From positions 1,301,060 to 1,365,059 of the forward strand of contig JAINUG010000086.1 in the NCBI GenBank assembly GCA_029706075.1: 64,000 nt of DNA. Direction: 5' to 3'. Origin of the DNA: Aldrovandia affinis (Eukaryota; Chordata; Actinopteri; Notacanthiformes; Halosauridae). Position numbers and translations under genes: made by a program. Under the pieces are notes generated by a model. That model was not told where the DNA came from. It saw only the letters and a program-made list of their open reading frames with translations, and did no database searches. This document shows positions 45,922 through 49,306 of the stretch, piece by piece; positions within the stretch are counted from its first letter, which is position 1, and each line of letters begins with the position of its first letter.

Positions 45922-46008
45922 GCGGTGTGGCGTCCCCAAGGGTTGGGCGACACGCACGGACCTTGCAGGGGGCGTAGGCAAGTGTAAGAACACAGAGGAG
46001 GCAGTTAA

Positions 46009-46014
46009 TTTATT
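46009..46014 (-). promoter_or_regulatory. Polyadenylation signal AATAAA in 3' LTR
   Basis: TTTATT on the plus strand. The same hexamer is at 48830-48835 in the other LTR, at 10079-10084 in the solo LTR and at 24452-24457 in the older element. Conservation in all four supports the minus-strand reading. Confidence 0.6.
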
Positions 46015-46245
46015 AAACTAACACGAACAAGGGCAACACGAAACAAAGGGTGGGGTCTTCAGGGGAATACAAACAAAGTCCACAAATCCTTATCTCGTTG
46101 TCCAAGTCCGTTCCAATGTCCAAAATCCAGTTAAGTAGTCCGCAATCCAGTCCGTAGTCCAAGTCCAAAACAACCCAATTTCCAACAAACAAACACACTC
46201 CAATACGCTCTCCAAATCCTGGCTGGTCAACGACTTCCACAGGTT

Positions 46246-46388
46246 TCTCTCTCTCTCTCTCTCTCTCTCTCTCTCTCTCTCTCTCTCTCTCTCTCTCTCT
46301 CTCTCTCTCTCTCTCTCTCTCTCTCTCTCTCTCTCTCTCTCTCTCTCTCTCTCTCTCTCTCTCTCTCTCTCTCTCTCTCTCTCTCTCC
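46246..46388. repeat. (CT)n microsatellite in 3' LTR
   Basis: About 143 bp of CT. The minus-strand frames over it (RERERE) are artefacts. The older LTRs at 9980 and 24353 have no such tract, so it arose in this sublineage before insertion. Confidence 0.95.
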
Positions 46389-46446
46389 AAACACACCGCA
46401 CTCCTTCCCCAAACACGTTCCTACTCCTATTTCAGAACAATGGGAT

Positions 46447-48637
46447 TCAGCCCTTTAAATAGGCCTCCAAAATGGCTTTCAGCTGGTCGTTTGTCCAATT
46501 GCCGTGTCCAGATGTCCAGACTCCATTGTCTCCGTTTGCCTGAAAAAACATCTGGCAGACATTACTGAGTGACGCAAGTTGCTCACCTTGACCGCCTCCA
46601 AGTGACCATATGTGTGTACTTGCTCTGGATTCCAAGAACGGAATGGTCACTGCTCCTGCTCTGGTCTTCACCAATCCTCCATGGCTCCTCCAGCGAACTT
46701 GATGCAGCTTCTCACTCTGAGGTCCTCTGCTAGGCCCCTTCCACCCCTCTTCCAGGTGGTCAGGCTCAGCAACCAGGGAAAACATTCTCTTTGAAAGATT
46801 GTTAGATGTATTCTTCACAATTGCATTTCCTTTCCACAGACGCTTCCCACGGTCCTTTCCTTGACAAGTCAGCCTATTTTGTTTCCGATTTTTCTTCCGG
46901 TGAGTCCTTTTAAACTCCCTTACTCTTCTCGGACTTTTCCCCTTCAGTGGAAGCAATGAACTCACCACTTCAGGAGAGGGTCGGGTGCTCCACCCGGCCT
47001 CAGCCATCGATAAGAGGCTTTCCTCAACGCTATGGTCCCACCATAGCTCATCCTCCGCAAACTGCTGTTCCTCCAGTTCACTTTCAAGGTCTGGCCAGCT
47101 GAGTGGGACTGAGGACCATCGCTCCCACTTAGATTCCGCTATCTGGTCATCATCTCCTGCTGGCTCCACTGGCTGTGAGAGCTCCACCTGTGTGGCAGAA
47201 TCTTGTACACCGGGCACACGTTTTGCACACTCAAGCTCTTCACTCACCTCGTCCAGTTGATTTTGTAGATCCAGCAGAGTCTCAGTTTGGATTTTTAACA
47301 CCTCGCGAAAGGATTTCTCTGTGGCCCGCTGCTGGGCTTCTATCTCCGCCATTTTCCCCTGAAGCTGTGCGGTCTGCTCCAGCTGCAGCTTCTGGACCTG
47401 CTCCTGGTGCTCCAGCGCACTCTTCTCTGCCGTCTCCTCCGCCTCTTTGAGTCCGCGCTCGAACCATCCCTTGGTGCCCTCCATGGACTGGATTTGAGCC
47501 TGCAGCTCCTCCACCGTCTGCTGTAGGCTCTCCAGCTCCCGAGTGCGGGCCTTCTCGTCGCGGAGCTGTGAGCGGATCTCCTCCTCGGTGCGGTTCTTGT
47601 CCTCGTGCAGGCAGCGCAGCTCCTTCTCGTAGCGCGCCCCGCCCCAGCACCTCCTTCTCGTGCTGCAGCCACGCGTCGCTCAGCTCCTCTTTGTGCCGCG
47701 ACTTCTCCTGCGCCACGTCGATGGCCAGCTCGTCCAGCATGGCCTTGCGCTTGTCCGCCATCTTCCTGGTCGCCTCCAGCTCCTGCTGGAGTTTGTCCTT
47801 CTCTTGGCCCCGTTCAGTCAGCTGCTCCAGGAGCCGGCTGTTGGCGCGGTTCACCTCCTGCAGCTGGGCGCTGACGTCATCTCTCTGGGCCAGGAGCTTC
47901 TCCTGCTCGGTCTGTAACTCCTGGTTCTGGGCCTTTTCCTGCTCCACGCTCTTCTCCAGCTGGTCACGGAGCTCCTTGAGCTGTTGGCCGTGCTTCTCGG
48001 ATTCCCCCCTCAAGGCCTTCTCCTGGACCGCCTGTAGCTCCTGGTTCTGGGCCTTTTCCTGCTCCACGCTCTTCTCCAGCTGGGCCAGCTGCTCCCGCAG
48101 GGCGTTGGCCTCGACCTGGTGCGTATCCTTGCTCTCCTGTTCCACTCGGCACCGGAGTTGCTCCGCCTCGGACGCATGGTTCTCCGCTGCTTTCCTTAGC
48201 TCTGCCTCCTTCTGGGCGAGCCTGGTCTGTGCATCCCCCAAGGCCCTGGCATACTCATCTGTGGCCTGGTCCTGGGACTCCTGCATGTCCAGACACTGTC
48301 GCTGCTCATTCTCAAGCCTCTGGGTTAGGTTTCTCACCTGCTCTTTAAGCGCCAAGTTGTGGGACTCTACACGCCTCATCTCATCGCCAAGGGATGCCTT
48401 CTCCTTTTCCATCTCCCCAGCCATGATTCCCAGCACTCTCAGGGAGTCCATGTGGTGCTCCTCTTGCAACTTCATCACTGCCAGCAGGTGGCGCTCCTCT
48501 GAGGTGTTCAACTCCACCTTTGCCTTGCACAGCTCAATCTGGGCACTCTGCTTCAGCTGCTGGACCTCACGGAGGGTGACACGCCATCGGTCCTCCACCA
48601 TGGCTGCCCGTCTCTTCAGTCTCTGCATCTCTTCCAT
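46447..48637 (-). CDS. Coiled-coil protein of the LTR element (one frameshift)
   Basis: Start MEEMQRLKRRAAMVEDRWRV at 48637 has a good context (A at -3, G at +4). An alternative ATG at 48718 lies inside the primer site. Residues 1-570 are almost all heptads rich in E, Q, L, K and R, with no glycine or proline breaks. KSVEQEKAQNQELQ occurs twice because of a 120-bp (40-residue) duplication. A single extra G in a G/C run near 47640 shifts the frame; the second part continues with EELQAQIQSMEGTKGWFERG and ends in a non-coil tail with FKRTHRKKNRKQNR (basic) and WSLGGGQGEQLASLSNVCQM. The total is about 730 codons, with no RT, protease or integrase. It resembles long host coiled coils such as rootletin-type or intermediate-filament-type rods in composition only. 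It could be a captured host gene or a gag-like structural protein. Confidence 0.7.
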
Positions 48638-48709
48638 CGTGGAGTCCGTTGCACAAACTAAACACAAACCCTGCTGCACTACCTCCTCTTGCCTATCTGT
48701 GCTGCCCTC

Positions 48710-48727
48710 TGCCCGCATTCTCCACCA
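48710..48727 (-). promoter_or_regulatory. Primer-binding site, tRNA-Ala type
   Basis: The minus strand reads TGGTGGAGAATGCGGGCA, 2 nt inside the 5' LTR. Its complement ends in CCCGCATTCTCCACCA, which agrees over all 18 positions with the 3' end (including CCA) of a common vertebrate tRNA-Ala(AGC) as I recall it. This fixes the element as an LTR retrotransposon and its direction as minus. Confidence 0.85.
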
Positions 48728-48729
48728 TA

Positions 48730-49306
48730 TGTGGCGTCCCCAAGGGTTGGGCGACACGCACGGACCTTGCAGGGGGCGTAGGCAAGTGTAAGAACACAGA
48801 GGAGGCAGTAATATGAACAAAAATGATAATTTATTAAACTAACACGAACAAGGGCAACACGAAACAAAGGGTGGGGTCTTCAGGGGAATACAAACAAAGT
48901 CCACAAATCCTTATCTCGTTGTCCAAGTCCGTTCCAATGTCCAAAATCCAGTTCGTAGTCCGCAATCCAGTCCGTAGTCCAAGTCCAAAACAACCCAATT
49001 TCCAACAAACAAACACACTCCAATACGCTCTCCAAATCCTGGCTGGTCAACGACTTCCACAGGTTTCTCTCTCTCTCTCTCTCTCTCTCTCTCTCTCTCT
49101 CTCTCTCTCTCTCTCTCTCTCTCTCTCTCTCTCTCTCTCTCTCTCTCTCTCTCTCTCTCTCTCTCTCTCTCTCTCTCTCTCTCTCTCTCTCTCTCTCTCT
49201 CTCACTCAGGTGTGACTGTGGCCTGCTGGGAAATGTAGTGTTTCCTGGCGCCCATGTGTTGTAGGCCAGGCAGCCATTTCCTAGTGCAGCCCATCGGGCT
49301 GCCACA
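48730..49306 (-). repeat. 5' LTR (minus-strand sense), promoter part deleted
   Basis: 577 bp from TGTGGCGTCCCC to GGGCTGCCACA. Between the (CT)n tract and ACTCAGGTGTGACTG it lacks the block that in the other LTRs contains CTTTAAATAG, the TATA-like site. AATAAA is at 48830-48835. Loss of the TATA block from the promoter LTR suggests weak or no transcription of this copy. Confidence 0.85.
49066..49203. repeat. (CT)n microsatellite in 5' LTR
   Basis: About 138 bp of CT, nearly the same length as its partner at 46246-46388. Confidence 0.95.

What the first reader, a model, noticed from the sequence alone, without database searches (positions are those of the whole stretch)
45926..49306. LTR retrotransposon whose only gene is a long coiled-coil protein
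TG...CA ends, a 4-bp duplication, two LTRs and a primer site prove an LTR element. Between the LTRs there is one sense-strand frame of about 730 codons of heptads and none of the retroviral enzymes. Non-autonomous LTR elements usually have no coding capacity, or carry gag. A rod-like coiled coil conserved between two insertions suggests either a stably captured host gene or an unusual structural protein. I know of no described family of this form, but I could not search.
Basis: partly seen in the sequence, partly recalled or inferred. Interest (0 to 1): 0.9.

Follow-up and report, generated by a model that had tools for sequence, protein, structure and literature searches.

The report
LTR retrotransposon carrying only coiled-coil gene
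A recently inserted, copy-and-paste mobile element that lacks the enzymes for its own copying carries a single long rod-shaped-protein gene that looks to have been under selection across copies; single-gene elements of this general sort are known, but this protein matched nothing convincing in the databases that could be searched.

Summary
Window 45926-49306, minus strand, is a young LTR retrotransposon: TG...CA ends, GCGG duplication, exact empty site. Its one gene (48637 to 46447, about 730 codons, frameshifted) encodes 471 proline-free heptad residues plus a 256-residue tail. The window also holds an older broken copy (about 71% identical), a solo LTR and an LTR fragment. Between the two internal copies dN/dS is 0.45 (0.34-0.59); 0 of 500, and 0-2 of 200 under five other settings, neutral simulations are as low.

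Corrections: each LTR lacks a different part of U3; only 471 of about 730 codons are coil; the central 793 bp has no blastn counterpart in the older copy and is richer in GC and CpG, suggesting a mosaic, possibly captured host cDNA.

'No described family of this form' is too strong: zebrafish BHIKHARI elements carry only a Gag with a coiled coil, no pol (PMC10996621). No Gag or capsid match appeared here. The protein database and genome search did not complete; no fish genome or Repbase was available. Verdict: new variant of a known kind.

The parts
45926..49306 (-). Copy 1: whole inserted LTR element, TGTGG...CCACA ends
   Evidence: empty site
45922..45925 (.). Target-site duplication GCGG, left
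49307..49310 (.). Target-site duplication GCGG, right
48730..49306 (-). 5' LTR of copy 1 (577 bp): U3 start, then (GA)n array 49066-49207, then R/U5; the TATA part of U3 is missing
45926..46484 (-). 3' LTR of copy 1: TATA-like box 46454-46461, (GA)n array 46246-46387, R/U5; U3 start missing, no polypurine tract seen; upstream edge approximate
48711..48727 (-). Primer-binding-site-like 17-mer, 2 bp inside the 5' LTR; assigned to tRNA-Ala from recall only
   Evidence: tRNA identity recalled, not tested
46447..48637 (-). Coiled-coil gene, about 730 codons, frameshifted near 47640; ends inside the 3' LTR U3 remnant
48134..48615 (-). N-terminal coil part shared with copy 2; dN/dS 0.37; GC3 0.74 (from the ATG to 48134)
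47341..48133 (-). Central coil part without blastn counterpart in copy 2; GC3 0.86-0.91, CpG o/e 0.68 overall; holds an internal duplication spaced 120 bp (47897-47975 / 48017-48095)
46522..47340 (-). C-terminal part shared with copy 2: coil end, acidic Trp-rich stretch, basic stretch, C end; dN/dS 0.49; GC3 0.51
24353..27775 (-). Copy 2: older, disabled relative; TSD ATAT in AT-rich flanks; no match to R/U5 or primer site at its 5' side; stops and frameshifts in the gene
9980..10616 (-). Solo LTR of the family (637 bp), TSD ATAT in AT-rich flanks
11021..11166 (+). LTR fragment, 95.9% identical to the solo LTR
44741..49823 (-). Target of the insertion: Tc1-like transposon with about 250-bp inverted ends (44741-44999 / 49568-49823), split by copy 1
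   Evidence: (Pfam match below cut-off)

Best explanation
A family of non-autonomous LTR retrotransposons mobilised in trans by the reverse transcriptase and integrase of another element. It carries one gene in the gag position: a long coiled-coil rod followed by an acidic/Trp-rich stretch and a basic stretch. Shown: LTR-type insertion, young age, the gene, absence of enzymes inside the element, divergence patterned by codon in the gene's frame. Inferred: the gene was under purifying selection while the element multiplied; at least the central part of the coil came from a GC-rich host mRNA by template switching during reverse transcription; the protein multimerises through the coil and binds the element's own RNA through the basic stretch, acting as an assembly or packaging factor that favours its own transcript in a partner's particles. 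My rough odds: LTR element 0.97, selection on the gene 0.8, some host-derived coil 0.45, packaging role 0.3.
For: TSD and empty site. Four family members in 64 kb: two internal copies, a solo LTR and a fragment. Coil statistics; single-sequence AlphaFold2 gives long helices (329 aa: helices 2-168 and 175-328, mean pLDDT 85.6; 410 aa: helix 13-154, ten-residue means 88-96 from residue 21 to 150, whole-model mean 60.2). dN/dS 0.45, bootstrap 0.34-0.59, over 393 codon pairs; the four other sense-frame tests give 0.83-1.43; 0 of 500 neutral simulations as low; 0, 2, 0, 0 and 1 of 200 under five CpG/transition settings. GC3 0.74 / 0.86-0.91 / 0.51 and CpG o/e 0.40 / 0.62-0.73 / 0.45 along the gene. 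Precedents: gag-only BHIKHARI elements (PMC10996621); host mRNAs captured by ERVs with ORFs under purifying selection (PMC4299795, passages); template-switch model of LTR-mediated retroposition (PMC5408686, passages).
Against: Only two internal copies were available. The neutral expectation for this sequence is already about 0.65-0.81, so the effect is modest. An antisense frame gives a similar ratio (0.40), though it has 7 stops in each copy. Both copies are broken, and 13 of 24 gaps between them are not multiples of three. No host gene was identified. The basic stretch gave no zinc-knuckle match and its own dN/dS is imprecise (0.56, 0.22-1.49). The absence of the central part in copy 2 could be a deletion, and tblastn aligns part of copy 2's middle to copy 1 residues that reach into the central part (32% identity, E 2e-07), which may be common descent or generic coil likeness. 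No trans-acting partner was seen.
Confidence: 0.5

Rival explanations
1. The gene is a strongly diverged Gag of the BHIKHARI / foamy-like kind (coiled-coil N part, nucleic-acid-binding C part), whose capsid part has been lost or is unrecognisable. The element is then a gag-only LTR element like Bik-1.
For: Gag position shortly after the primer site; coiled coil plus basic stretch; Bik-1 has one 617-aa ORF, N-terminal coiled coil, no pol.
Against: No Gag, capsid or zinc-knuckle family among the Pfam matches at E up to 10 for the N part, C part and tail (HMMER's filters drop most matches above about 0.1). The coil is at least 471 residues. The tail shows no confident fold in a single-sequence model, which cannot exclude a capsid fold. 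The GC3 mosaic is not expected of an inherited gag.
Confidence: 0.3
2. A captured host cDNA carried as passive cargo: it has no role for the element, and the low dN/dS reflects repeated capture from, or exchange with, a constrained host gene.
For: High GC3 and CpG of the central part; known capture by LTR elements; both copies decayed.
Against: The same outer gene parts sit between related LTRs in two insertions about 71% identical, which fits one capture followed by vertical descent.
Confidence: 0.2
3. A chance frame: GC-rich, heptad-like low-complexity DNA that happens to be open, as the 446-codon antisense frame is.
For: Antisense stop-free frame of 446 codons at 47451-48788; 15 of 500 Markov simulations have a frame of 329 codons or more.
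Against: Proline-free heptads and 3.5 periodicity; codon-patterned divergence; conserved non-coil C end.
Confidence: 0.05

Closest known systems
BHIKHARI-1 and -2 (Bik-1, Bik-2/crestin), zebrafish endogenous retrovirus families (PMC10996621; abstract and passages, section 5 read)
   Same: LTR elements with one ORF (617 aa in Bik-1), no pol, N-terminal coiled coil in Bik-1 Gag, thought to be mobilised by a partner, recent insertions with perfect TSDs
   Different: Bik-1 Gag has a predicted capsid domain and a glycine-rich C patch; here the coil takes 471 residues and no capsid was recognised. No sequence comparison was possible.
Crocodilian ERVs with captured KIT-ligand and nectin3 mRNAs (PMC4299795; passages read)
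   Same: Retroelement carrying a cellular-type ORF with evidence of purifying selection
   Different: There the host gene is identified and other retroviral domains remain (KIT-ligand captured without loss, nectin3 in place of env); here no host gene is identified and no other gene remains.
LTR-mediated retrocopies and maize Bs1 (PMC5408686; passages read)
   Same: LTRs around non-retroviral coding sequence; template-switch origin proposed
   Different: There parent genes are known; here none is, and two diverged copies share the gene.
Bdelloid rotifer LTR retrotransposons with extra ORFs (PMC5408684; passages read)
   Same: Additional ORFs, some with coiled coils, carried by LTR elements
   Different: There the additional ORF (ORF3) accompanies the usual genes; here the coil gene is alone and in gag position.

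Membership tests
LTR retrotransposon | Direct terminal repeats with TG...CA ends and short TSD | tested here: met
   the repeats are incomplete in U3
LTR retrotransposon | tRNA primer-binding site next to the 5' LTR | tested here: inconclusive
   17-mer beginning TGG at 48727-48711; the tRNA-Ala match is recalled only
LTR retrotransposon | Polypurine tract before the 3' LTR | tested here: inconclusive
   By eye only: not seen in copy 1, where the U3 start is missing too; a purine-rich run precedes the 3' LTR of copy 2
Autonomous Ty3/gypsy element or retrovirus | pol with RT, RNase H, integrase | tested here: not met
   no such Pfam match in the gene parts; the internal region is filled by the coil gene
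BHIKHARI-like gag-only element | single ORF, no pol | tested here: met
   the ORF is frameshifted in this copy
BHIKHARI-like gag-only element | capsid domain in the ORF product | tested here: inconclusive
   no Pfam match; tail mostly below pLDDT 50 in a single-sequence model
BHIKHARI-like gag-only element | sequence relationship to BHIKHARI / lokiretroviruses | not testable with these tools
   no BHIKHARI sequence or eukaryotic collection at hand
Captured host gene (retrocopy in an LTR element) | identifiable intron-less match to a host gene | not testable with these tools
   protein database not answering; PDB and Pfam gave nothing convincing
TRIM / LARD non-autonomous LTR elements | no coding capacity (recalled definition) | tested here: not met
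   codon-patterned gene

The most novel reading that the evidence does not exclude
A retroelement lineage in which Gag has been replaced by a rod-like coiled-coil protein of cellular origin, extended at least once by a further captured coil segment, and kept by selection because the rod packages or transports the element's RNA in cis while enzymes are borrowed in trans.
Probability: 0.2. Interest if true: 0.8.

Novelty: new variant of a known kind. Interest (0 to 1): 0.5.

Why it matters
Non-autonomous LTR elements are expected to lose coding capacity, because proteins act on any RNA. A gene that stays constrained in such an element implies either cis preference or a useful effect on the host, as proposed for BHIKHARI Gag. 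If the coil is of host origin, the family would show a capsid-less structural protein serving an LTR element, and a gene assembled by repeated capture.

Tried and rejected
Pfam: 17 queries in three calls (2, 8 and 7 proteins; some overlap). For the gene there were only sub-cut-off matches, all on the coil of the C part, best zf-C4H2 (E 0.0024, 18.9 bits against a cut-off of 34.5) and DUF7491 (E 0.014); none for the N part or the tail. The frame of copy 2 (26284-26649) gave DUF4548 at E 0.0029, below cut-off. I read these as coil likeness. PDB by sequence: best E 0.0087 to keratin 5 for the N part and 0.091 to PcrA for the C part, also read as generic. IMG/VR scan with the N part: 9 pattern matches, none confirmed by tblastn. 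Papers: 9 searches; 'ltr retrotransposon' + 'coiled-coil protein' + 'captured' gave 0 papers, 'tRNA-Ala' + primer binding site + LTR retrotransposon + zebrafish gave 0. These speak for that library and those terms only.

Rejected: that ORF length alone proves a gene (15 of 500 simulations reach 329 codons). Rejected: that dN/dS alone fixes the strand (one antisense frame gives 0.40); stops decide for the sense strand. I tried to recall which vertebrate gene the central coil resembles and could not name one; no such claim is made.

Unexplained: how a pair of LTRs with 1 substitution in 319 bases came to lack complementary parts of U3. Two deletions after insertion, or an abnormal reverse transcription involving the (GA)n array, are both possible; neither was tested.

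Full report
What is there. The stretch 45926-49306 is an insertion of 3381 bp read on the minus strand. It begins and ends TGTGG/CCACA and is flanked by GCGG on both sides. Taking it out with one GCGG gives a frame that runs through the junction without a stop, 33 residues before and 70 after. The interrupted sequence has about 250-bp inverted ends and a Tc1-type match below Pfam's cut-off in its left part (E 1.7e-4); the likeness across the junction is by eye and recall. Together this is an integrase-type insertion into a Tc1-like transposon. Downstream of the (GA)n array the two repeats differ by 1 substitution in 319 aligned bases with a 17-bp and a 1-bp gap, so it is recent.

What is damaged. 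The family's solo LTR at 9980-10616 (637 bp) shows the complete layout. Compared with it, the 5' LTR of copy 1 runs from the U3 start straight into the (GA)n array and lacks the TATA part. The 3' LTR has the TATA part but not the U3 start, and no polypurine tract is seen. I have no settled explanation for complementary losses in so young a pair.

The gene. From ATG 48637 to the stop at 46447 there are about 730 codons with one frameshift near 47640. The two coil pieces (332 and 139 residues as cut) hold no proline and are 69% E, K, R, Q, L and A. Hydrophobic periodicity at 3.5 residues is reached by 0 of 1000 and 1 of 1000 shuffles. The 256-residue tail is not clearly a coil (66 of 1000 shuffles). 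Single-sequence AlphaFold2 models give long helices over both coil pieces and little confident structure in the tail. The stop lies in the U3 remnant of the 3' LTR, so the last residues are probably not original (inference).

Constraint. A second internal copy, 24353-27775 (TSD ATAT in AT-rich flanks, so weak on its own), shares 48615-48134 and 47340-46522 at about 71%. Over 393 codon pairs dS is 0.50, dN 0.225 and their ratio 0.45 (bootstrap 0.34-0.59). Five pairs with stops, all in copy 2, and codons touched by gaps were left out. In the two other sense frames of each segment the ratio is 0.83-1.43. Gap lengths are multiples of three in 11 of 24 gaps, so the copies also carry frame-breaking changes. 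Neutral simulations from the same codons average 0.76 and none of 500 reach the observed value. With CpG and transition bias varied, means are 0.655-0.808, and 0, 2, 0, 0 and 1 of 200 reach it. By parts the ratio is 0.37 for the N coil, 0.38 for the coil end, 0.55 for the acidic stretch, 0.56 for the basic stretch, 0.60 for a 25-codon linker and 0.39 for the C end; three of these last five intervals include 1. One antisense frame also gives 0.40, because its third positions coincide with those of the gene (inference); it contains 7 stops in each copy. I read this as moderate evidence for selection on the protein before the copies died. It rests on two copies.

Mosaic. The central 793 bp (48133-47341) has no blastn counterpart in copy 2, which has about 270 bp there. 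tblastn does align part of that copy-2 stretch to copy-1 residues reaching into the central part (32% identity, E 2e-07), so some common descent at its start is possible. GC at third positions is 0.74 before it, 0.86-0.91 in it and 0.51 after it; CpG observed/expected is 0.40, 0.62-0.73 and 0.45; the window as a whole has GC 0.414 and CpG 0.408. It also holds an internal duplication spaced 120 bp. Gain of a captured GC-rich coil segment in copy 1's line fits; loss in copy 2 fits too.

What it could be. Pfam, PDB and the viral contig scan gave no convincing relative. The protein database and the genome search did not complete, so host origin, copy number and partner are untested. The nearest published parallel I saw is BHIKHARI in zebrafish: LTR elements with a single ORF (617 aa in Bik-1), a Gag with an N-terminal coiled coil, no pol, thought to be mobilised by a partner (PMC10996621, section 5 read, passages). 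Crocodilian ERVs show captured host mRNAs with evidence of purifying selection (PMC4299795, passages), and template switching between LTR RNA and cellular mRNA is a described capture route (PMC5408686, passages).

Verdict. The kind, a single-gene non-autonomous LTR element, is known. A gene made largely of coil with no recognisable capsid would be a new variant, and a selected, capsid-less, host-derived rod would be more than that, but this was not shown.

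Noticed in passing
45926-46484 and 48730-49306: The two LTRs of a very young insertion lack complementary parts of U3, and the 3' one also lost 17 bp next to an AATAAA signal; both carry a (GA)n array of about 140 bases.
   Followed up: partly
24353-25453: The 3' LTR of copy 2 is about 1.1 kb, some 460 bp longer than the solo LTR, so it may hold a further insertion.
   Followed up: no
27043-27475 (minus strand): Copy 2 has coding-like sequence upstream of the shared coil (by eye, with stops and a frameshift) that copy 1 lacks.
   Followed up: partly
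47451-48788 (+): A 446-codon stop-free antisense frame over the coil gene, probably a mirror of its codon composition; no Pfam match.
   Followed up: yes
1927-1977, 9917-9970, 34225-34277, 42909-42962, 58863-58916: Five UnaL2 LINE 3' elements at or above Rfam's gathering score; one ends 9 bases from the solo LTR.
   Followed up: no
19007-19459 (-), 50252-50653 (+), 17676-18134 (+): Fragments of other DNA transposons: HTH_Tnp_Tc3_2 (E 4.2e-13), DDE_3 (E 1.2e-07), and a BED finger match below cut-off (E 0.012).
   Followed up: no
56631-56841: 31-bp minisatellite, 7 copies.
   Followed up: no
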